Shown: positions 11,301 through 56,105 of the stretch, piece by piece
Layout: every line of letters begins with the position of its first letter
Numbering within the stretch: the stretch's first letter is position 1
Assembly (NCBI RefSeq): GCF_000210915.2
Contig: NC_016620.1
Coordinates: 2,852,001-2,916,000, forward strand
Length of the DNA stretch: 64,000 bases
Direction: 5' to 3'
From: Halobacteriovorax marinus SJ
GTDB lineage: Bacteria; Bdellovibrionota; Bacteriovoracia; Bacteriovoracales; Bacteriovoracaceae
Made by a program: the position numbers and the translations under genes
The notes under the pieces: model-generated
The model's input: only the letters and a program-made list of their open reading frames with translations
Told to the model about the DNA's origin: nothing
The model's database searches: none

Positions 11301-13032
11301 CTCTCTTTGATTCTAAGTAGAGAGCAATATTTTTAAGGGCCCAATTTCTCCATATAGCAGCACCGTAGAGAGATGGAAACTTTATTCTTGTCTTATTCTT
11401 CTTTAATTTATTAATCAGCTTCTCTGAGAGAATTTCTGTATAGTGAGTTGCTCCCTTTCTTTGCATTAACTCTGTTAAAAATAAAGAAAGATTCTGTCTT
11501 TGAGTATTAATTGTCGCTAAAGTTCCATCACTTAATTTAGTTTCATACATTTTACCTGCGGCAGGCTTTTCAAAGAATTTCTGGAACTCTACTCCAATAT
11601 TGTAAGTGTAAGTTCTTGCAGCCGTGTGCTTCTTAGTTCTTCTATTGTAATTTGCTCTTGTCTTTCCTTTAAATACAGACATCGCCTCTTGTAACTTCAT
11701 TTGAACAATAGTTGGATAATGTGAAACATCATCGATGTCAGCCTTTGTAAAGTGACTTCCATCTCTATCGTTTCTTAGAGCACTCTTATATTCTTCAAAT
11801 GGTAGTAACCCAGAATAACCCATCTTCGTAGGATCTTTATCCGCATTATCCATGAAGTACTCTAAATACTGATAGTTATTTAAGCTAAAAGTAAGTCCAT
11901 GCCCTGACATAATATTTTGTAGATACGTGTCTCCCTGACCTTCTACAAATTGAAAGTTAAACTTCTCTGGCATACTTCCATTAAAGTGAGACTGACAAGA
12001 TCTTGGTACATCGATCGCTTCATTATCTCCAATCATTGCTTGATAAACATAGATCTGAGACATCATCATATGAAGAGTAAACCACTTTAGCGCTCTTACA
12101 TAATTTCTCTTTGTTGGCGTCTTTACCAGAGTTAGAACATCTCTAGAAAGGATTTCGTTTTCATTAAAAACAAGTCTAGATTTTCCCCATGATTCATCTA
12201 ATACATTTAAGTGATATGGATCTGTCTGCTCATCAGGTCCTAGTGTGATTAATTTTCTTTGATCAATTTGATCTTCATCAATTAAGTCCGTTGGAAACTC
12301 AGGAAGAAGTGATTCATAGAAAAACTTACCATCGTACTCTCTGTCGACATAAGATCTTTTAGATACAACGAGATCTCTCATTGGCAGAAGAACACCACCA
12401 AGGTACTTTACAAGTAAGTCTCTTCTTACTTCTTCTTCTACTTCATCGTCATAGAGGTATTTCTTTAACTCATCTTTTAAGATTTTTGCTTTCTTATTTA
12501 AACTTGTTAATAATTCATCATTTGCATTTAACGAAGGAATCTCTGACTCTCTCTCTTCTTCTTCAAGCTTCATTACTTTTTCAGCAAATTTTTCTATATG
12601 TCCCTTAACTCTCTTTGGAACACATTTTTGAGCTTCTTCTTTTGAAAGATTCTGATCAAATGTATATAAGTACTGACCACATGAAGCCTCATTGATACCT
12701 TTAACAATCTTCTCCCAATTGCTTAAAGTTGCTTCATCGTAGGCAACGATTTCATCTTCCTCAAAACCAAATAAATCATCATATGACTCTTCTTCTTCAC
12801 TGGCCTCTTCAGATACGGCTGATTCTAAAGCATCCACTGCATCTGTATTACACTCGGCCTTAAGGTCCTTTCCTTTGATAGAAGTTTTAAAGCTCTCAAT
12901 TTCTTTGAATAACTCTTCTGTTGAGTACTTATGATCAAAAGACGCCTGAGCTGGAACACGTAGAATCGTCTCAGCAAAGGCCAATTGAAATGATATTAAG
13001 TAAATTAAAAGCGCAGAGATAAATCTCTTCAT
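8314..13032 (-). CDS. giant exported protein of unknown function, 1572 aa
   Basis: I place the start at 13032 because GAGGGG lies 6 nt before this ATG and the protein then opens with a classic signal peptide (MKRFISALLIYLISFQLAFA). An in-frame extension of 17 residues lacks this logic. Residues about 45-110 are acidic. A Gly/Ala-rich hydrophobic hairpin (about 960-1010, including GLGAGFLGVAAIIIGAA and GLCAPLGIAMIAAGTSA) and a second apolar segment near 1045 could insert into a membrane. The remaining 500 residues are helical and Lys-rich. No family was recognised. The long soluble N-part plus central membrane hairpin recalls large pore-forming or effector proteins, but this is only architecture. 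A degenerate sigma-54-like site and two palindromes lie upstream. Confidence 0.8.
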   Translation of the reverse strand: MKRFISALLIYLISFQLAFAETILRVPAQASFDHKYSTEELFKEIESFKTSIKGKDLKAECNTDAVDALESAVSEEASEEEESYDDLFGFEEDEIVAYDEATLSNWEKIVKGINEASCGQYLYTFDQNLSKEEAQKCVPKRVKGHIEKFAEKVMKLEEEERESEIPSLNANDELLTSLNKKAKILKDELKKYLYDDEVEEEVRRDLLVKYLGGVLLPMRDLVVSKRSYVDREYDGKFFYESLLPEFPTDLIDEDQIDQRKLITLGPDEQTDPYHLNVLDESWGKSRLVFNENEILSRDVLTLVKTPTKRNYVRALKWFTLHMMMSQIYVYQAMIGDNEAIDVPRSCQSHFNGSMPEKFNFQFVEGQGDTYLQNIMSGHGLTFSLNNYQYLEYFMDNADKDPTKMGYSGLLPFEEYKSALRNDRDGSHFTKADIDDVSHYPTIVQMKLQEAMSVFKGKTRANYNRRTKKHTAARTYTYNIGVEFQKFFEKPAAGKMYETKLSDGTLATINTQRQNLSLFLTELMQRKGATHYTEILSEKLINKLKKNKTRIKFPSLYGAAIWRNWALKNIALYLESKRDVKKSDAAYRDAQIACQYVGKGSEICKDGRGKHLISQMADYLKEFTTSSDFVPLRRLEEMKLEKNYPVFGYIWNMNTNRGNSEFSFSNMSELDFLTGQMQALNPWASVRLSYLVAMDELEHVEAGITPKYIQTRRGSRVSSETRVQRQNIKLHIEMLEKAAKKINIDEVLVPSYANKILSDDEKDYFWKDIAERVNEENSNIFQTELKGKSYYSRLEDLSYQTLLTRQNVEEYEAKYNNTISGEAWDEIDDLLESDEGQIGQFFLDLYKRKGNVDQQIALFEEFSEENGIDNKFSAKMNFLSLDNGIKSPIFKDLIKEAAMVRKLKVLSNLNEFCNMEPNTHEDMKTLFYATSKAQNQLNQLAGLPGVPENVLDKINSMSDEEWTDMWLGLGAGFLGVAAIIIGAACTGVTGGLCAPLGIAMIAAGTSALTMQLTLVYREVDRKMEADENEEKVKRMEEMGFATSGSSDEVSRSWGWAIFEAVSLIPMVGVVGRSVKVGSKMTYISAKTMLRNTGKIGFKKAWNMAGVAGKTAATEADVSFARYVLGFRSLQDDLAKALGKNSDEASQAVESISRELVRSGASEELVKNAMSEMDNVKHLYKTGRVTMAQMTQKLGKILAPFKKHAKMGADDIFEYTSNVIVRETPEMINKKTAQVVADYFGHNPKALQRLLKSYSTKWFSSHDKLVHARAVMRKANKGEYLWGTNWIRKFRFEQLAKNGTKINRMIDGLEAVSKNGDDLSEYLLKNMEDLSDIFVKIPVRKREIPYMVLLEGGPHTGGVLKNTSSAFVNRVSGAVYDLADGLIMKKFLNARVRLVYESTKATARETFGLSKYVAAETTFEALKAFDKTVDEAISTASSSKSKRIAAEMEKFQDSISKRVHQFASQKVSSENVGSFVSKLGAKKQAAFREFVEMSPESIKRLLFKAEGAEQEALAQVIWSSVSVDDIFGMRELGDMAYKVVRELAEYNTAGEFDKFVNALKILVISRDPGVVDFM

Positions 13033-13038
13033 ATAAGT

Positions 13039-13079
13039 CCCCTCAAGTTCTATATGCAATATATATTGCAATTGAGGGG
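13039..13079 (-). promoter_or_regulatory. nested inverted repeats covering the ribosome site of the 1572-aa gene
   Basis: CCCCTCAA (13039-13046) and TTGAGGGG (13072-13079) are perfect reverse complements. They enclose the 16-bp palindrome TGCAATATATATTGCA (13055-13070). In the minus-strand mRNA the Shine-Dalgarno GAGGGG is the 3' arm, so a transcript starting upstream of 13079 would pair its ribosome site. If transcription starts near 13067 the repeat is more likely a DNA operator. Confidence 0.5.
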
Positions 13080-13093
13080 CCAATCACATGCCC
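13078..13093 (-). promoter_or_regulatory. degenerate sigma-54-like (-24/-12) site for the 1572-aa gene
   Basis: On the minus strand GGGCATGTGATTGGCC has GG and GC exactly 10 nt apart, as sigma-54 requires. It keeps GGCA and the TGATTGGC area but misses four of eleven consensus positions (TGGCACG-N4-TTGCW). Predicted +1 is near 13067, 35 nt before the ATG. Confidence 0.35.
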
Positions 13094-13133: not shown

Positions 13134-13150
13134 TGTCTAAACTTTAGACA
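13134..13150. promoter_or_regulatory. 17-bp palindrome, probable regulator binding site
   Basis: TGTCTAAACTTTAGACA is a perfect 8+1+8 inverted repeat about 75 bp upstream of the predicted start of the 1572-aa gene's transcript. A near-copy occurs at 18347-18363. Confidence 0.5.
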
Positions 13151-18346: not shown

Positions 18347-18363
18347 TGTCTAAAATTTAAACA
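18347..18363. promoter_or_regulatory. palindrome matching that at 13134, probable activator site
   Basis: TGTCTAAAATTTAAACA is an 8+1+8 inverted repeat with one imperfect pair. It differs from the palindrome at 13134-13150 at two positions. Its centre is about 105 bp upstream of the predicted sigma-54 start at 18460, a normal distance for an enhancer-binding protein. Confidence 0.5.
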
Positions 18364-18433: not shown

Positions 18434-18449
18434 TGGCACGCTGATTGCT
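18434..18449 (+). promoter_or_regulatory. sigma-54 (RpoN) promoter, full consensus match
   Basis: TGGCACGCTGATTGCT matches TGGCACG-N4-TTGCW at every fixed position, with GG and GC 10 nt apart. The predicted +1 is near 18460, 26 nt before the ATG at 18486, leaving room for the GGAGAG ribosome site. Confidence 0.75.
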
Positions 18450-18485: not shown

Positions 18486-18854
18486 ATGAACACTTTAAGA
18501 ACAGTCTTTTTTACGATGCTGACACTTTCATTTATGCAAGTGATTCAAGCAAGAGCAGCTGTCCATACGAAGCTAGAGTGCCATACTCCTAGAATGAAGA
18601 AGTCTTTTGTTATTTTAAATAATAAGATTAGTTTCCTCGAAGAAACGGATAATGGCAGAATGGTTGCCTCAGCAAATGCGATGAGAACAAATTATAAGAA
18701 GAATGGATTTACCAAAGTTCTAAATTATTGGGGACAAAGGCATGAAATCCATATCGGCGATGTTGATAAGCTGTCGGAGCTTAACGACTATCTCACGATT
18801 CGAACTAATAAAGGACATGAGATCACGTACCCCCTAACGTGTTATCAGAGATAG
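18486..18854 (+). CDS. small exported protein of unknown function, 122 aa
   Basis: A signal peptide (MNTLRTVFFTMLTLSFMQVIQARA, cleavage near AVHTK) precedes a basic 98-aa mature protein with two cysteines near its ends (LECHTPR and LTCYQR), likely one disulfide. No family was recognised. GGAGAG sits 7 nt before the ATG. A consensus sigma-54 promoter lies directly upstream, so expression probably needs RpoN and an activator. A bidirectional terminator follows. Confidence 0.75.
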   Translation: MNTLRTVFFTMLTLSFMQVIQARAAVHTKLECHTPRMKKSFVILNNKISFLEETDNGRMVASANAMRTNYKKNGFTKVLNYWGQRHEIHIGDVDKLSELNDYLTIRTNKGHEITYPLTCYQR

Positions 18855-49742: not shown

Positions 49743-49757
49743 ATTTTAGTACCTACC

Positions 49758-49774
49758 ACATACTACTAGTATGT
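49758..49774. promoter_or_regulatory. probable MarR operator
   Basis: ACATAC-TACTA-GTATGT is a perfect 6+5+6 inverted repeat, the usual size for a MarR dimer site, 16-32 bp upstream of the regulator's ATG. Confidence 0.6.
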
Positions 49775-49904
49775 TAATAAGACTATATAACTACGCTCGT
49801 CTTAATGAGTCAAGCCTAGGTTACTGTTCTAACAAAAACATGTTTGATTAACTATAGGAAAATACGTCAAGGGGAACGCGACGCAAAATAAGAGTTCATC
49901 TACT

Positions 49905-51446
49905 TCACTTGCGCGTAACCCCATCGAAGATATTTTTTAGATCGCTATGCTTTCTTCGCTCTTTCAAAAGAAGTTCATTCATAAGATCTCTTTCAGCCTG
50001 AGTTAAGTTAAACTCCGAAACGGCATTATTATCAAACTCTTTTAGGGTCATCTCTCTAGGCCACTCAGCTCCATCAAATTTCTCATCAACAACCTTCTTA
50101 AAGACCTTTCTTTCTGAGATATAGATAATACCAAAACCATTGCCAGAAACTTCTTTCTCAAAATCTCCTAACTTTGCTACCAGATCTTTATCATTTTGAA
50201 CTGTAAGACTAACACCACTAGGAACTGAGGCTAAACCTCTAAAGTTTCCTCGTCCTCCGCCAGGGCCTCCAAGACCTCTAGATCCACCAACTCCCGCGCG
50301 ACTTCCCGCACTCGCTGTCGCTGCCGCTCCCTTCTTAGAAGAAGGTACTTGAGCGCTAGAAGAGCTCGTGTCGAGTTCATTACTTCCTTTATTTGAAGAA
50401 GTCGATTCAACTTCCTCGTCACTATTCTCGTTACTGTATTCATCACCATTCACTTCTGGCAAATTGGCTGAAATCTCAGGAACTATAAAGCTAGAATTCG
50501 TTTTAGAACTATAAGATGGCGAAGATTGAAAAGAGTCTGGTTCAGATGAAAAGAACCTATCTACAAATTGTTTTGCAGGTTTTTTTCCAGTGATTCTTGT
50601 CACTTCATCGATCTCACGCTTAAGTGCACCGAGCTCACTTGAAAAAATATTCTTCCCATTCGGCCTAGACGCCAATCTTCCATATCTTCTAACTAATGAG
50701 TCTTGAATCTTGTTGAGCTTTTCATCTCTATACTTATCAGCACTTCTAATAAAACTCTGCTTCGCTTTGGCAAATTCCTCATCACTCATACCGACTCTGA
50801 TTTTTCCATCCAATGATTCAGGAATTAAATTCTCATAACTATCTGTTAGCTCTTTAAACTCAGGAGTCCCTTCTTTAATTCCAACATCACGAGCGTAACT
50901 TCTTACTCGGTCCCTTACGCTTTCAACAAAGGCAAGCTCCGCCATTTTCATTTCGTGCAGGGCCTTCTGTTCTGCAACTGTTCTATCAGTCTCTGAAATA
51001 GTCGGTGGAGCCTTCATATCAATAGGAGCAGTATCTAAAGCACCTAAGACCTCTGCACGAGCAGGCTTTGGGCCCATTAGGCAGCTCAAGTTACTAGCAA
51101 AGTCCAAGTTTCTATCTAAATCTGATTTCGATTGACTCGACATATGTAAAAGAGCATTTCTTGAAGCTGAATCATTCGTTTTATTTGCCTCTTCCACAAG
51201 CGCATGGATCTCCATTGTAGGAATACTACAAATAAGACTCACTCTCTTACTTAAATTTTCACAGCGCTTTGAGACTTCTTTTGCAAATTCATCTCTAAAT
51301 TCACTCTTTAAAGCATTTGCTAGAAAAGGCTCCGTATCTACATTCTGAGAAGACTTATTTATCAAATCTGCTAAGGCCCGACTCTTCTTTTCAAACCTGA
51401 GCTTCTGTCTCATTATCTGCACAAGAGAAGCGAGAAAGTGACTCAT
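49905..51446 (-). CDS. protein of unknown function, up to 513 aa, possibly the second half of a split gene
   Basis: No family was recognised. The first 230 residues are helical and charged with several cysteines (KRCENL, LICSIP, LSCLMG), unusual for a cytoplasmic protein here. A low-complexity stretch at about 330-405 contains Ser-rich and Gly-rich runs (GVGGSRGLGGPGGGRGNFRG), followed by a charged C-terminal domain (420-513). There is no signal peptide. Starts at 51446 and 51413 are possible, neither with a good ribosome site, and both inside the upstream gene. This suggests translational coupling or a frameshift with the upstream exported gene. Confidence 0.6.
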   Translation of the reverse strand: MSHFLASLVQIMRQKLRFEKKSRALADLINKSSQNVDTEPFLANALKSEFRDEFAKEVSKRCENLSKRVSLICSIPTMEIHALVEEANKTNDSASRNALLHMSSQSKSDLDRNLDFASNLSCLMGPKPARAEVLGALDTAPIDMKAPPTISETDRTVAEQKALHEMKMAELAFVESVRDRVRSYARDVGIKEGTPEFKELTDSYENLIPESLDGKIRVGMSDEEFAKAKQSFIRSADKYRDEKLNKIQDSLVRRYGRLASRPNGKNIFSSELGALKREIDEVTRITGKKPAKQFVDRFFSSEPDSFQSSPSYSSKTNSSFIVPEISANLPEVNGDEYSNENSDEEVESTSSNKGSNELDTSSSSAQVPSSKKGAAATASAGSRAGVGGSRGLGGPGGGRGNFRGLASVPSGVSLTVQNDKDLVAKLGDFEKEVSGNGFGIIYISERKVFKKVVDEKFDGAEWPREMTLKEFDNNAVSEFNLTQAERDLMNELLLKERRKHSDLKNIFDGVTRK

Positions 51447-52488
51447 GAGTGAGTATCTTCATTTTGAGTTCTTTCACTTTATCTGAATCACTATCACTAA
51501 ACTTACAGAGAGATTTCATAATTTTGCCTGAGTCTTCTAAAGCCAATTCATTCTTTATAAAGCCCTCTAGACTATTTCCATTTTCTTTTACGTCCAAACG
51601 TAAGGCGTGCATATCCATCATGTACTGGTGTGTTGGTTTGCCTATTAACTTTTGTAAGTCAGAGGAATTTTTAATATTCTGAAACTTAGCACTATCTATA
51701 CTACTGCTTCTATTCTTCAAATAATTCTTTAAAGTAGCTGAGTGAAGCTCAAGCTTAGGCTGATAGAAATTCCCTTTCTTCTTCTTAAGACTCTTCAAAT
51801 AACTAATAGGATTAAATTGCTTATCTTTTAAAAAAGAAAACATTTTATTTTCTTCATTTAGATCTAGATCAATCTCACTATAGGCCTTCTCAATTCCCTC
51901 ACACTTGGGCTCAATTTCTTCTTCACATAACCCTTCTTCAATACCGTAGTATCTCATCATATCAAGAAGGTGCTCGGCCTCTCTTTCTAACTGAATAGAA
52001 TTGGTGATAAGAACTTTATTTGCACTTTCTTGTATATGCTGTTTGATAGGATGCTTATCATCATCACTTGAGCAGATTGACTTTTTCGTTTCATCAAAAT
52101 TATTGACCATATCGCAGATACATGAGTTTTGAGGAAGTTCATACTCCGAACTATATGCAGTCAAACTTAACTTCTCCCAACCTCTCTTGTACTTTCTACT
52201 GCAAAGATTTTCTAAAGTACCTTGAGCTTTTCTCTTATTAAAAAAGTTATCTATATCTAAAAGGCTTGGCTTTATTGGGATTAAACTTCCACTTTGATCA
52301 ACACACATAGTCCCCTGAACTTTAGAAGTTAGAACAATTTTACTTCTTTTCAAACTATCTACACTTTCCATACTACAAAAAGAAGTGACTCTTCTATTAA
52401 ATGATTCGAGGCTAACCTCAGCTTGAGAAAGTGACACTAAAGAAATAAATGTAAGGACCGTTTTCGCTAATATATTCATTACCTTCAT
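51391..52488 (-). CDS. exported protein of unknown function, 365 aa
   Basis: A signal peptide (ILAKTVLTFISLVSLSQA) is followed by a helical, Cys-rich mature region (CSME, MCVD, CSRK, CICD, CEEEIEPKCEG, CKFSD, FSCAD). No family was recognised. Its last 56 bp overlap the next ORF in another frame. Either of two ATGs three codons apart may start it. Confidence 0.68.
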   Translation of the reverse strand: MKVMNILAKTVLTFISLVSLSQAEVSLESFNRRVTSFCSMESVDSLKRSKIVLTSKVQGTMCVDQSGSLIPIKPSLLDIDNFFNKRKAQGTLENLCSRKYKRGWEKLSLTAYSSEYELPQNSCICDMVNNFDETKKSICSSDDDKHPIKQHIQESANKVLITNSIQLEREAEHLLDMMRYYGIEEGLCEEEIEPKCEGIEKAYSEIDLDLNEENKMFSFLKDKQFNPISYLKSLKKKKGNFYQPKLELHSATLKNYLKNRSSSIDSAKFQNIKNSSDLQKLIGKPTHQYMMDMHALRLDVKENGNSLEGFIKNELALEDSGKIMKSLCKFSDSDSDKVKELKMKILTHESLSRFSCADNETEAQV

Positions 52489-52580
52489 TCTAATTCAAGT
52501 TATTAAACTTATCTGCTTTACGGTATAACCGACTGAAAACTTTAACTATTACCTGGCAATTATTATTGGCGATTTTGGAA

Positions 52581-52608
52581 ATAAAAAAGCCACTCATTGA
52601 GCGGCTTT
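52581..52608 (-). terminator. rho-independent terminator after the protease gene
   Basis: AAAGCCGCTC/GAGTGGCTTT (minus strand, one G-U pair, loop AAT) is followed by a T-run on the minus strand. It lies 29 bp past the stop at 52637. Confidence 0.75.
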
Positions 52609-52636
52609 ATCAATATTTAGAAATTACTTTTTACTT

Positions 52637-53641
52637 TTAGAAATCCCAATCTGGCTCATCGGCAATCCCATCAATCTTTCCATTATACTTTTCCATATAG
52701 TCAGCTAGGTCTAAGTCAAATTTCTCATAAGTCACAAACCTTGTATTATTCGACCCCTCAACACCATTAGAGCTAGCAAAGTCATTTGTGAGACCACCCT
52801 TAATCACTCCAAAGAGAAAGGCCTGCTTTCCTTCTAATATTCCTGGAGCGTAGTCTTCATCTACTTCATAACTCAAAATTATTGCACCACCACTGGCTCC
52901 ACCAAACGTCGTAATATCATCACTGACACCGCCAATTGGATCTCCTGAAACATCACTCGCCGCCATATCACCTGTAACATCGTAAGTGAGAACCGTTCCG
53001 CCCTTTCCTTTCTCTGCATCGGCACTATAGCCTGCTGCCGCAAACTCAACTCCATTACTCATGTGACCATCTAGAGAAGATCCTCCATTATAGTCTAAGA
53101 TAAGTGGGGGAACATCTCTGAAGTCTACAAAGTCTTCTAAGAGTAGAAAGGCGACGTCTGATTCCCAATTATTATGAATTACTTCTTTTACTTTTCTAGT
53201 GATGGTCTTTCCATCTTTAGTCTTTGTTGTCCAAGTTGCAGTATTCCCAGCTAGACAATGTAGCGAAGTCACTACAATGCGAGAACTCTGCTTTGGAGTA
53301 AAGGCCACAAGGGATCCTCCACAAATATTTGCCTTTCCATTAGACTTCTCAATTCTAAGTCTTCCAACTGCATCTAAATATCTTGGTGAGTCTGGACCTT
53401 TGACTAGCCTATCATCTGAAGGGTGAATTGCTTTATCTGATTTTAAATATAAACCTTTTGAAACCTCAGTTGATCTGTCTGTTGAAATAAACGAATCAAT
53501 AGTCTTTACTTCAGAAGCGATACTTCTAGAGTTTCCAGTAGTTGGTGTTACGGTTTTAGAGCTATGGCATTCCGAAGCTGTGGAATATCCGCAGATGAAT
53601 AGAACATTAACAGTGAATAGAATTTTAACAACGGCTCTCAT
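52637..53641 (-). CDS. exported trypsin-like serine protease (S1 family)
   Basis: The 334-aa protein has a signal peptide (MRAVVKILFTVNVLFICGYSTA). The chymotrypsin-fold triad is visible: His in VVTSLHCLAG, Asp in SDVAFLLLEDF and Ser in FGGASGGAIIL (GASGG instead of the common GDSGG). A propeptide-like region of about 70 residues precedes the catalytic domain. The start at 53641 has AAAGGAAA upstream; the frame 22 codons longer overlaps the promoter. A sigma-54-like promoter lies 50-65 bp before it. Secreted proteolysis fits a predatory or scavenging life (inference). Confidence 0.85.
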   Translation of the reverse strand: MRAVVKILFTVNVLFICGYSTASECHSSKTVTPTTGNSRSIASEVKTIDSFISTDRSTEVSKGLYLKSDKAIHPSDDRLVKGPDSPRYLDAVGRLRIEKSNGKANICGGSLVAFTPKQSSRIVVTSLHCLAGNTATWTTKTKDGKTITRKVKEVIHNNWESDVAFLLLEDFVDFRDVPPLILDYNGGSSLDGHMSNGVEFAAAGYSADAEKGKGGTVLTYDVTGDMAASDVSGDPIGGVSDDITTFGGASGGAIILSYEVDEDYAPGILEGKQAFLFGVIKGGLTNDFASSNGVEGSNNTRFVTYEKFDLDLADYMEKYNGKIDGIADEPDWDF

Positions 53642-53690
53642 GTAATTTCCTTTACTTACAATAAAAACATTCGCTCGATACCCTCTATGT

Positions 53691-53706
53691 AGCATACACC
53701 ATGCCA
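53691..53706 (-). promoter_or_regulatory. sigma-54 (RpoN)-like promoter of the protease gene
   Basis: The minus strand reads TGGCATGGTGTATGCT: GG and GC are 10 nt apart and only two fixed positions differ from TGGCACG-N4-TTGCW. The predicted +1 near 53680 leaves a 39-nt leader. Confidence 0.6.
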
Positions 53707-53750
53707 AAACTCACCAGAAAATACTATTTATTGTAATTACTCCCCAATTA

Positions 53751-53773
53751 GTTCCAGGTGCTTTTTCAGGACA
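53751..53773 (+). repeat. REP-like sequence, lone copy
   Basis: GTTCCAGGTGCTTTTTCAGG is identical over 20 bp to the REP-like sequence at 54833-54852, about 1.1 kb away, in the same orientation. Confidence 0.7.
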
Positions 53774-53788
53774 CAACAAAGACTAAAC

Positions 53789-53815
53789 GGAGCTGCTTAA
53801 GCCAGTCGCAGCTCC
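53789..53815 (-). terminator. inverted repeat, possible terminator of the lipoprotein gene
   Basis: GGAGCTGC (53789-53796) and GCAGCTCC (53808-53815) form a perfect 8-bp stem. On the minus strand it is followed by GTTTAGTCTTTG, only moderately T-rich. It could alternatively be an activator site for the protease promoter, about 120 bp upstream of its +1. Confidence 0.45.
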
Positions 53816-53884
53816 AAGGAAAGTTTTCAAACTGATTAAACTCTCACAATAGCCCTTTCAAGAATGGATAATAATTCCTAAATA

Positions 53885-54679
53885 TTAGGAATTAGGCTTT
53901 CCTAAAAGAGATACGAATTCAACCTTCTCAATTCCATTTTCTTCTAATCGTTTTGAAAGCATCTCAAGATATTCTTCATTCGTTTTTAATTGAAATTCCT
54001 CAATGAAGGCACGACTCTTTTTATATTCTTCATCTTCCTGAATTTTAACAATTTCAGAAAGAGTTTTAGTTGGCACAGCTTGAAATAAGTAGAGATTCAA
54101 TTGAAGAGTTATTAACTTTAAATTGGAAATTAATCTTCTATAAAAAGATAGCTGTTTTTTAGTGCTATCAAGTTTACTAATCATAAGAAGTAACTTTGCT
54201 GAGAAGTCTCCTTGGTAAAAGTTTGGAAAGTCTACTTCAACAATCTTCTCTACAAGATCTAATCTCTTTGCTGCATCTTCAATCCTATTGAAGTTCTCTA
54301 TATACTTAGTAAACTCAGGCCCATCAATTTTTTTTAATCTAAGAAGATTCAATTTCCTTACGATTGGTTTATCTATAAACTTGAAAGAATTTTCCTCAAA
54401 TTCGGAATAGCTCTTTGAACTTTGAGCTTTATCAAAGAGTAACTCACTATAGTTACTCTCTCTAATAAAACTCTCCGCTACTTCTGCAGCCTCCTTATTC
54501 ACTACATTTTCAGCACCTTTAGAGTACTCTTCAATCATAGCAATTAATTCATTCTGATCTAAAATAACCCCATTAAAGAGTTTATAGACCTTCTGATCAT
54601 CCTGTGAAACCTTCAAGCTAGATGTGCTACACGACACGAAAGTTAGACTCATTAGAATTGTCATCAATATTTTTTTCAT
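53885..54679 (-). CDS. lipoprotein of unknown function, 264 aa
   Basis: GGGGG lies 5 nt before the ATG at 54679, and the protein opens MKKILMTILMSLTFVSC with the lipobox Cys17. A 22-codon longer frame is rejected because it would bury the signal peptide. The mature region is helical and Lys/Glu-rich with no other cysteines. No family was recognised. A sigma-54 promoter and an inverted repeat lie upstream. Confidence 0.75.
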   Translation of the reverse strand: MKKILMTILMSLTFVSCSTSSLKVSQDDQKVYKLFNGVILDQNELIAMIEEYSKGAENVVNKEAAEVAESFIRESNYSELLFDKAQSSKSYSEFEENSFKFIDKPIVRKLNLLRLKKIDGPEFTKYIENFNRIEDAAKRLDLVEKIVEVDFPNFYQGDFSAKLLLMISKLDSTKKQLSFYRRLISNLKLITLQLNLYLFQAVPTKTLSEIVKIQEDEEYKKSRAFIEEFQLKTNEEYLEMLSKRLEENGIEKVEFVSLLGKPNS

Positions 54680-54740
54680 TTTGCCCCCACTTAAGTTTGA
54701 AAAATCAATTTGAATACTTTTCTTAATTTGATCTATGTAA

Positions 54741-54756
54741 AGCAATTAGCTTGCCA
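54741..54756 (-). promoter_or_regulatory. sigma-54 (RpoN) promoter of the lipoprotein gene
   Basis: The minus strand reads TGGCAAGCTAATTGCT, one mismatch from TGGCACG-N4-TTGCW with correct GG-N10-GC spacing. Predicted +1 is near 54730, 51 nt before the ATG. Confidence 0.68.
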
Positions 54757-54803
54757 ATTTTTTTGAATGTAATATTGGGAAGATATAGAAAGATAAAAGG
54801 AAA

Positions 54804-54821
54804 TGTTCTAATTCAAGAACA
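54804..54821. promoter_or_regulatory. inverted repeat, possible activator site
   Basis: TGTTCT-AATTCA-AGAACA is a perfect 6+6+6 inverted repeat centred about 82 bp upstream of the predicted sigma-54 start at 54730. Confidence 0.45.
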
Positions 54822-54830
54822 CCTATAGAC

Positions 54831-54856
54831 GGGTTCCAGGTGCTTTTTCAGGGACC
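54831..54856 (+). repeat. REP-like sequence, left of the transposase
   Basis: GGGTTCCAGGTGC (54831-54843), then TTTTTCAGGGACC. It faces the inverted copy at 55661-55686 across the RAYT gene. Confidence 0.75.
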
Positions 54857-54897
54857 AGTGGTCTTACACATTTTAAAAGGTCGATAAATCTAAGGTA

Positions 54898-55545
54898 CTA
54901 AGCATCCTTAATAAAAAGATTGGGCTTAATTTGTTTTTTAGTGTTGTTATTTTTTGCATAAGAGAAAATAGGTCTTTTTAATCCAGTTCTAATACTATGA
55001 TCCTCTTCTTCACTATACTCAATATTGAGCCAGTCAATGACCTTTTGGTCAGTAATAAGACTATGGTCTTTCAAGTCAACTAGAGGCTCAATTTTTAGGA
55101 TATCACTTTGGAAGTGCTCACAAATTGAAAATGGATAGTATTCACATTTCTTAGTGATATGAGCCTTAACAGGGTTTCTCAAAATGTACTTATAAGTATT
55201 CAATCTATGAGTAGGCTCTATTAGAAGAGATGACTTGTATCGGCCTCCATAAATAGAGTTAATACGACTTGTTTTTCTTTGAACTCTCAATGTCGATTTC
55301 TTCATGAACCAATACATCACGATATCAATATTTGAGAGTGGTGTTTGAATCATCAAATGATAATGATTATTCATTAACGTGAAGGCATAAATTCGAACAT
55401 CGAATTCATCCATTAGAAATTCAAGTAACTCAATGTAGAGACTCCACATTTGATCTATCGGTAGCGGAAACCACTCTTTATTATGAGCTCTTGCTACAAT
55501 GTGATATGGATATTTATTTTCTCTTATAGTAGGTCTTCGTCCCAT
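54898..55545 (-). CDS. REP-associated tyrosine transposase (RAYT, Y1_Tnp/IS200-like)
   Basis: The 215-aa protein has the Y1 HUH-transposase motif NNHYHLMIQTP (about residues 56-66; His-x-His metal ligands). The opening PYHIVARAHNKEWF and the later SIYGGRYKSSLLIE and YKYILRNPVKA blocks are typical of RAYT proteins. The catalytic Tyr cannot be fixed by eye. RAYTs are single-copy, domesticated enzymes that cut REP hairpins. Inverted REP-like sequences on both sides (54831-54856 and 55661-55686) support this rather than an IS200 element. Confidence 0.88.
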   Translation of the reverse strand: MGRRPTIRENKYPYHIVARAHNKEWFPLPIDQMWSLYIELLEFLMDEFDVRIYAFTLMNNHYHLMIQTPLSNIDIVMYWFMKKSTLRVQRKTSRINSIYGGRYKSSLLIEPTHRLNTYKYILRNPVKAHITKKCEYYPFSICEHFQSDILKIEPLVDLKDHSLITDQKVIDWLNIEYSEEEDHSIRTGLKRPIFSYAKNNNTKKQIKPNLFIKDA

Positions 55546-55660
55546 ACTAGACTTTCTGCAATCTAAAAATAAATATTATTCACTCAAGGTGTTAGTTCTA
55601 TTGGTTTTTTACAAAAATAAATCAAAAAATTATTTTCTCGAGCTGCCTTTTTTGTGCGAA

Positions 55661-55686
55661 GCCGCCTTAAAAGGCACCTGGAACCC
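55661..55686 (-). repeat. REP-like sequence, right of the transposase
   Basis: On the minus strand GGGTTCCAGGTGCC (55686-55673), then TTTTAAGGCGGC, containing a short GCCTTTTAAGGC hairpin. It shares 13 bp with the left copy and lies 1 bp past the stop of the 92-aa gene. Confidence 0.75.
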
Positions 55687-55687
55687 A

Positions 55688-55966
55688 TTAGGATTCAAAC
55701 TTTGCAATGGCCAAATCGAGCTCCTCTGGCACTTCCAACTCCTGCTGCGAAGCCACCTCAGCAGACTCTTCCTTACTCTCTTCTATCTGCTCAGCAAATT
55801 GAGTAATCCCCTGCTCAACCATTTCAACCTCTGTTGTACTCGAGTTATCGACACCAAAGACCCACAAACTATTTCTCACTTGTTTAAAAGAGCTTGCAGC
55901 AGACGAGGACGTTACACTCGCAATGAAAACGAACAAGACAATTGATAAAAACTTAGTCACTTTCAT
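55688..55966 (-). CDS. small exported acidic protein of unknown function, 92 aa
   Basis: A signal peptide (MKVTKFLSIVLFVFIASVTSSSAA) leaves a mature peptide of about 68 residues. It is rich in Glu, Gln and Ser, without cysteine, and probably helical or disordered. No family was recognised. AAGGGG precedes the ATG, and a sigma-54-like promoter lies 52-67 bp upstream. Confidence 0.68.
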   Translation of the reverse strand: MKVTKFLSIVLFVFIASVTSSSAASSFKQVRNSLWVFGVDNSSTTEVEMVEQGITQFAEQIEESKEESAEVASQQELEVPEELDLAIAKFES

Positions 55967-56017
55967 TGGTATAACCCCTTGTTATTGCGTTATTTAAAAT
56001 AGTTATACCTATATAAG

Positions 56018-56033
56018 AGCAAGTTCCATGCCG
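56018..56033 (-). promoter_or_regulatory. sigma-54 (RpoN)-like promoter of the 92-aa gene
   Basis: The minus strand reads CGGCATGGAACTTGCT, two mismatches from TGGCACG-N4-TTGCW with intact GG-N10-GC and TTGCT. Predicted +1 is near 56007, 41 nt before the ATG. Perfect inverted repeats lie upstream at 56034-56048 and 56061-56077. Confidence 0.62.
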
Positions 56034-56105
56034 AGAAATCGCATTTCTTTGACTTTGAAGATTCTTTTTGAAAGAATTTAAGTGACTCTATTCATGGATG
56101 AAATA

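What the first reader, a model, noticed from the sequence alone, without database searches (positions are those of the whole stretch)
53691..56033. Three sigma-54-like promoters in 2.4 kb, each before an exported protein
TGGCATGGTGTATGCT (protease, 53641), TGGCAAGCTAATTGCT (lipoprotein, 54679) and CGGCATGGAACTTGCT (92-aa protein, 55966) all keep GG-N10-GC. All lie 50-65 bp before the start codon on the coding strand. With 18434 and the weaker 13078 site, all five downstream genes encode signal-peptide or lipobox proteins. This looks like an RpoN-dependent set of envelope or secreted factors, possibly tied to a stage of the life cycle.
Basis: partly seen in the sequence, partly recalled or inferred. 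Interest (0 to 1): 0.72.

Follow-up and report, generated by a model that had tools for sequence, protein, structure and literature searches.

The report
Sigma-54 promoters before exported-protein genes

Summary
The genome encodes one complete RpoN and seven strong enhancer-binding proteins. The -24/-12 pattern occurs 49 times against 9 for its reversed control. This was replicated in another genus (21/27 vs 31/86) and in unselected DNA. The focus sites are conserved before orthologues: 4/4 congeneric genomes for the 92-aa protein, 1/1 for the lipoprotein, and protease homologues in four other species. A palindromic upstream site (TGTCTAAA-N-TTTAGACA) marks part of the set, including the 13 kb and 18 kb promoters; a second class precedes the lipoprotein. 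So the three focus promoters share sigma-54 but probably not one activator. They are neighbours because a 5.9-kb block lies beside the ancestral 92-aa gene. RpoN dependence and a life-cycle link remain undemonstrated. Some sites drive apparent small RNAs instead; one occurs in 73 of 115 family genomes and is absent from Rfam.

The parts
53691..53706 (-). sigma-54 promoter TGGCATGGTGTATGCT of the protease gene; predicted start of transcription near 53680
   Evidence: matching sites before protease homologues in G001, G002, G010, G013
52637..53641 (-). exported trypsin-like serine protease, 334 aa, signal peptide, invariant H128, D162, S250 (GASGG)
   Evidence: marginal Trypsin_2 match just under the Pfam cut-off; alignment of 10 homologues
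54741..54756 (-). sigma-54 promoter TGGCAAGCTAATTGCT of the lipoprotein gene; predicted start near 54730
   Evidence: orthologue in G003 has TGGCAAGGTAATTGCT at the same spacing
54805..54820 (.). palindrome GTTCTTGAATTAGAAC (U2 class), candidate activator site 64 bp before the promoter
   Evidence: kept as GTTCCTAATTTGGAAC before the G003 orthologue
53885..54679 (-). lipoprotein, 264 aa, lipobox FVSC, no Pfam family
56018..56033 (-). sigma-54 promoter CGGCATGGAACTTGCT of the 92-aa gene; predicted start near 56007
   Evidence: conserved in 4 of 4 congeneric orthologues
56050..56080 (.). block AAATTSTTTCAAA-N11/12-(T)GTCAAA shared upstream of the 92-aa promoters, candidate activator site (seen by eye)
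   Evidence: sequences of L278, L280, L281 and the window
55688..55966 (-). exported 92-aa protein, signal peptide, conserved motif NSLWVFGVDN, no Pfam family
18434..18449 (+). sigma-54 promoter TGGCACGCTGATTGCT before the exported 122-aa protein at 18486
   Evidence: orthologue with site in G013
18347..18363 (.). U1 palindrome TGTCTAAAATTTAAACA, candidate activator site 79 bp from centre to promoter
13067..13082 (-). weaker sigma-54 promoter TGGCCCCTCAATTGCA before the exported 1572-aa protein starting at 13032
   Evidence: homologue with site in G013
13134..13150 (.). U1 palindrome TGTCTAAACTTTAGACA, candidate activator site upstream of 13082
49743..55687 (.). block absent between the same flanking genes in relatives; carries the protease, lipoprotein and Y1 transposase genes

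Best explanation
The three elements are sigma-54 (RpoN) promoters. RNA polymerase with sigma-54 binds the -24/-12 element as a closed complex, and a AAA+ enhancer-binding protein bound some 50-100 bp further upstream opens it, giving a short leader before a gene for an exported protein. In this organism and its family sigma-54 is used mainly for exported proteins (roughly 40-60 genes by extrapolation) plus a few small RNAs. Several activators split the set: one binds TGTCTAAA-N-TTTAGACA (18434, 13082 and others), another GTTC-N8-GAAC (the lipoprotein and others); those of the protease and 92-aa promoters are unknown. Shown here: the sequences, their position, the excess over controls, the exported-gene bias, conservation before orthologues, and co-occurrence of the first palindrome with sigma-54 sites. 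Inferred: actual RpoN dependence, activator binding, timing of expression.
For: Pattern excess 49 vs 9 and 36 vs 3, and an excess in nearly all 39 genomes examined. One RpoN with AID, CBD and DBD domains and seven strong enhancer-binding proteins. Exported genes 26/32 vs 40/124, p=6e-7; 21/27 vs 31/86 in G013, p=1.5e-4; unselected 400 kb 6/98 vs 1/253, p=0.0023, control matrix 0. Site conserved before 4/4 orthologues of the 92-aa gene, the lipoprotein orthologue and protease homologues of four species. Ten target pairs shared between genera. Upstream palindrome found de novo, 88.8 vs 39 for shuffles, 15 vs 1 in the genome, positioned 47-97 bp upstream of sigma-54 sites in three genomes, p 3e-8 to 4e-7.
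Against: No start-site, expression or rpoN-mutant data. Gene starts and signal peptides come from simple home-made rules. The matrix was trained on sites that include four of the five in the window. The protease promoter has no recognised activator site. The second palindrome was found on the set in which it is counted and is weak in G013 (1/34). No activator could be assigned to a motif. Site and exported bias could partly reflect chance sites in the weaker matches: about one in six of the 49 hits would be expected by chance.
Confidence: 0.88

Rival explanations
1. The matches are chance or composition-driven, and the exported bias is a by-product of a genome rich in exported proteins.
For: About 28-36% of genes are called exported in any case, and 9 of 49 hits are expected from the reversed control.
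Against: Five-fold excess over control, bias against a matched background, replication in another genus, and conserved core with changing spacer before orthologues.
Confidence: 0.04
2. The promoters are real sigma-54 promoters, but the three focus genes are a functional unit switched on together by one activator as a secreted set.
For: They are adjacent, in the same orientation, and all exported. Tightness has p=0.024 under random placement.
Against: No shared upstream palindrome. In relatives the 92-aa gene stands alone and the lipoprotein lies elsewhere.
Confidence: 0.12
3. The genes are transcribed mainly from other promoters (sigma-70 or FliA) and the sigma-54 sites are secondary.
For: In Bdellovibrio bacteriovorus two thirds of attack-phase promoters, including those of proteases and surface proteins, carry a FliA motif (PMC3627812). 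Other promoter types were not examined here.
Against: Conserved distance to the start codon and conservation of the site before orthologues.
Confidence: 0.08

Closest known systems
[quoted passage not shown] 2011, PMC3162934)
   Same: Sigma-54 promoters linked to the cell exterior, including lipoproteins.
   Different: That study stresses biosynthesis and transport of exterior building blocks and does not mention Bdellovibrio. Here the targets are mostly individual signal-peptide proteins of unknown function in a predator.
FliA attack-phase regulon of Bdellovibrio bacteriovorus (PMC3627812)
   Same: An alternative sigma factor in front of proteases and surface proteins of a predator.
   Different: Different sigma factor; the non-FliA third of those promoters had no strong motif, and no sigma-54 motif was reported.
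QseF/GlrR-GlmY system of enterobacteria (PMC8745638, PMC6075780)
   Same: Sigma-54 promoters with TGTC...GACA activator sites that drive an envelope-related small RNA and rpoE.
   Different: Spacing N10 there, N9 here; no protein here reaches the GlrR model cut-off; the small RNA is unrelated by Rfam.
Sigma 54 regulon of Chlamydia trachomatis (PMC7482065)
   Same: Reported link of sigma 54 to membrane reorganisation and secreted effectors in a biphasic life cycle (title and abstract).
   Different: Unrelated organism and targets; a stage link is not shown here.

Membership tests
sigma-54-dependent promoter | GG at -24 and GC at -12 with 10 bases between, in a TGGCAYR-N4-TTGCW context | tested here: met
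sigma-54-dependent promoter | genome encodes RpoN with activator-interacting, core-binding and DNA-binding domains | tested here: met
   above the NCBIfam rpoN_sigma cut-off
sigma-54-dependent promoter | genome encodes AAA+ enhancer-binding proteins with the GAFTGA loop | tested here: met
   (exact GAFTGA found in four of them)
sigma-54-dependent promoter | right strand and distance before a gene, conserved before orthologues | tested here: met
sigma-54-dependent promoter | upstream activator binding site | tested here: inconclusive
   clear palindromes for 18434 and 13082, a conserved one for the lipoprotein, a candidate block for the 92-aa gene, none recognised for the protease
sigma-54-dependent promoter | transcription requires RpoN and ATP hydrolysis by an activator | not testable with these tools
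   needs an experiment
exterior-type sigma-54 regulon | targets enriched for exported or envelope proteins | tested here: met
exterior-type sigma-54 regulon | one stage-specific or commonly regulated set | tested here: inconclusive
   at least two activator-site classes; stage not testable
QseF/GlrR regulon | TGTC-N10-GACA activator sites and a GlrR orthologue | tested here: not met
   spacing here is N9 (N10 from PMC8745638); no protein over the GlrR model cut-off
S1-type (trypsin-like) protease | His-Asp-Ser triad with GxSGG | tested here: met
   H128, D162, S250 invariant in 10 homologues; Pfam Trypsin_2 only just under cut-off, 26.2 vs 27.6 bits

The most novel reading that the evidence does not exclude
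Halobacteriovorax and its relatives run a dedicated sigma-54 circuit for exported proteins, with activators of undescribed binding specificity and a family-wide sigma-54-driven small RNA, that deploys prey-directed proteins at a set point of the predatory cycle, in place of or beside the FliA programme of Bdellovibrio.
Probability: 0.35. Interest if true: 0.78.

Novelty: new member of a known kind. Interest (0 to 1): 0.6.

Why it matters
Much of what makes predation inside prey cells work is thought to lie in exported proteins, many of unknown function. A promoter signature that picks out such genes gives a short candidate list and makes their control directly testable. My searches of the held library found no published sigma-54 regulon for Bdellovibrio-like predators; the H. 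marinus SJ genome paper (Crossman et al. 2013) was not held and could not be checked. Sigma-54 control of exterior functions is an established theme, so the kind is known; the target set, the activator sites and the small RNA appear new.

Tried and rejected
A first gene-start rule cut off signal peptides and was replaced. The U1-like match 92 bp before the 92-aa promoter was rejected: it is the start of the divergent nuclease gene (ATGTCTAAA). The U1 search at 2 mismatches was little above control (41 vs 26), so only up to 1 mismatch was used for counts. A stricter U1 formula (TGTY-N9-RACA) gave only 3/32 in the own genome (p=0.013) but 8/34 in G013 (p=4e-8). U2 is weak in G013 (1/34). NCBIfam did not name any activator over its cut-off. 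Rfam had no match for the small RNAs; one of the 49 hits (L016) lies inside tmRNA and is a chance match. The window is not a hotspot by number of sites. Coding-strand and intragenic hits were set aside as probable chance.

Full report
ORIGIN. The window is bases 2852001-2916000 of a 3,435,933-bp contig in a genome of 3,437,906 bp, the rest being a second contig of 1,973 bp. These sizes and the 36.7% G+C equal those published for Halobacteriovorax marinus SJ, a marine predator of bacteria, and its plasmid (PMC5760749).

Genome-wide the sigma-54 pattern gives 49 hits at up to one mismatch against 9 for the reversed pattern, and TGGCAN7TGCT gives 36 against 3. The logo is classical, with an AT-rich stretch after the -12 element. 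Four of the five sites were in the training set, so the ranking alone is not independent proof. The machinery is present: one RpoN with all three domains and seven strong enhancer-binding proteins, plus weaker or divergent ones.

Sites in promoter position precede exported-protein genes in 26 of 32 cases, against 40 of 124 promoter-bearing background genes, p=6e-7. By eye, two of the six exceptions (L002, L022) carry signal-peptide sequence that the rule missed, and another (L047) looks like a flagellar rod protein. In another genus (G013) the figures are 21/27 against 31/86, p=1.5e-4. In 400 kb taken at roughly even steps, 6 of 98 exported genes but 1 of 253 others have a site scoring 12 or more within 200 bp, p=0.0023; the one exception, beginning MTSCGVKK, looks like a lipoprotein with a mis-called start, and a column-reversed control matrix finds none. 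At the stricter cut-offs of 16 and 18 the numbers in this sample are too small to be significant. All of this rests on simple rules for genes and signal peptides.

FOOTPRINTS AT THE THREE GENES. The 92-aa gene has orthologues in all four congeneric genomes; each has a site scoring 19.6-25.4 some 52-55 bp before the start, with changed spacers. The lipoprotein has one orthologue (G003, 63% identical), with TGGCAAGGTAATTGCT in a different neighbourhood. Protease homologues in G001 (L136), G002 (L128), G010 (L129) and G013 (L127, L131, L133 twice) have sites scoring 11.6-19.4 about 38-53 bp before the start; the shorter paralogues of G001 do not. The protease has an invariant His-Asp-Ser triad and a marginal Trypsin_2 match. 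Ten target proteins of the own genome match G013 targets, including those of the 18434 and 13082 promoters.

ACTIVATOR SITES. A de novo search upstream of the promoters found a 21-bp palindrome, A.TGTCTAAA.TTTAGACA.T, log-likelihood 88.8 against 39 in shuffled sequence. At up to one mismatch it occurs 15 times against 1 in the own genome; summing the table over the 25 family genomes I get 192 against 36. It lies 47-97 bp upstream of independently found sigma-54 hits far more often than chance in three genomes. In the window its two best copies sit before the 13082 and 18434 promoters. The three focus promoters lack it. The lipoprotein promoter instead has a GTTC-N8-GAAC palindrome that the G003 orthologue keeps. 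A block shared upstream of the 92-aa promoters is a third candidate, seen by eye. No activator could be assigned to any motif.

WHY THREE IN A ROW. In all four congeneric genomes the MarR-like gene and the 92-aa gene are neighbours; in the window 5.9 kb lie between them, carrying the protease, the lipoprotein and a Y1 transposase gene. That this is an insertion here rather than a loss in the relatives is inference. The 16-mer GTTCCAGGTGCNTTTT occurs only three times in the genome, all here, around the lipoprotein and transposase genes. The cluster is thus best read as a juxtaposition; its tightness has p=0.024 under random placement.

NOT ONLY PROTEINS. Some of the best sites have no gene downstream. 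One drives an apparent transcript of about 100 nt that ends in a terminator hairpin. It was found in 73 of 115 family genomes from 28 genera; 30 aligned copies, nearly all with the promoter core, keep a GTGTGTGTGT start, a hairpin with loop GGA and an invariant ATGTCTCTC, while terminator stems differ in sequence. Rfam has no match. The covariation term of the automatic fold is weak (-0.66), in part because the terminators are hard to align.

VERDICT. RpoN-type promoters: very likely. Exported-protein bias: well supported by sequence. One common regulon or a life-cycle stage: not shown. The kind is known (PMC3162934); the members are new as far as the held library shows.

Noticed in passing
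L003 (own genome C1:2219896-2220024, minus); L227-L256: Apparent small RNA of about 100 nt behind a perfect sigma-54 promoter, found in 73 of 115 family genomes and 28 genera, not in Rfam; GGA in a hairpin loop and an invariant ATGTCTCTC.
   Followed up: yes
L035:5016 minus (own C1:2117688) and L168:1516 minus (G013): Second candidate sigma-54-driven RNA: long closing stem GGCCTTGATCAG/CTGATCAAGGCC with a different but pairing stem in G013, repeated CCTACCTT motifs, a marC-like gene nearby in both.
   Followed up: partly
L010:1501 plus (own C1:309563): Third gene-less sigma-54 site, followed after about 270 nt by a terminator-like GGTACC hairpin.
   Followed up: no
window 54898-55545, with 53751-53766, 54833-54848 and 55669-55684: Y1 (IS200-like) transposase gene with inverted flanking copies of GTTCCAGGTGC; a third copy lies beyond the lipoprotein gene; these are the only three copies in the genome.
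   Followed up: partly
L028/L029 (own C1:1790430-1790655): Divergent pair of sigma-54 promoters with U1 palindromes between them, driving a non-exported protein one way and an exported protein the other.
   Followed up: no
L113 (own C1:176132): U1 palindrome about 120 bp before a flagellin-like gene, without a recognised sigma-54 site.
   Followed up: no
L126, L130, L132, L134 (G001): Shorter paralogues of the protease have multiplied in one congeneric genome, two in tandem, without sigma-54 sites.
   Followed up: partly
genomes G027, G031, G035: Distant genomes of the same phylum have about 100 sigma-54 pattern hits in 2 Mb against 7-12 for the control, denser than here; their targets were not examined.
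   Followed up: no
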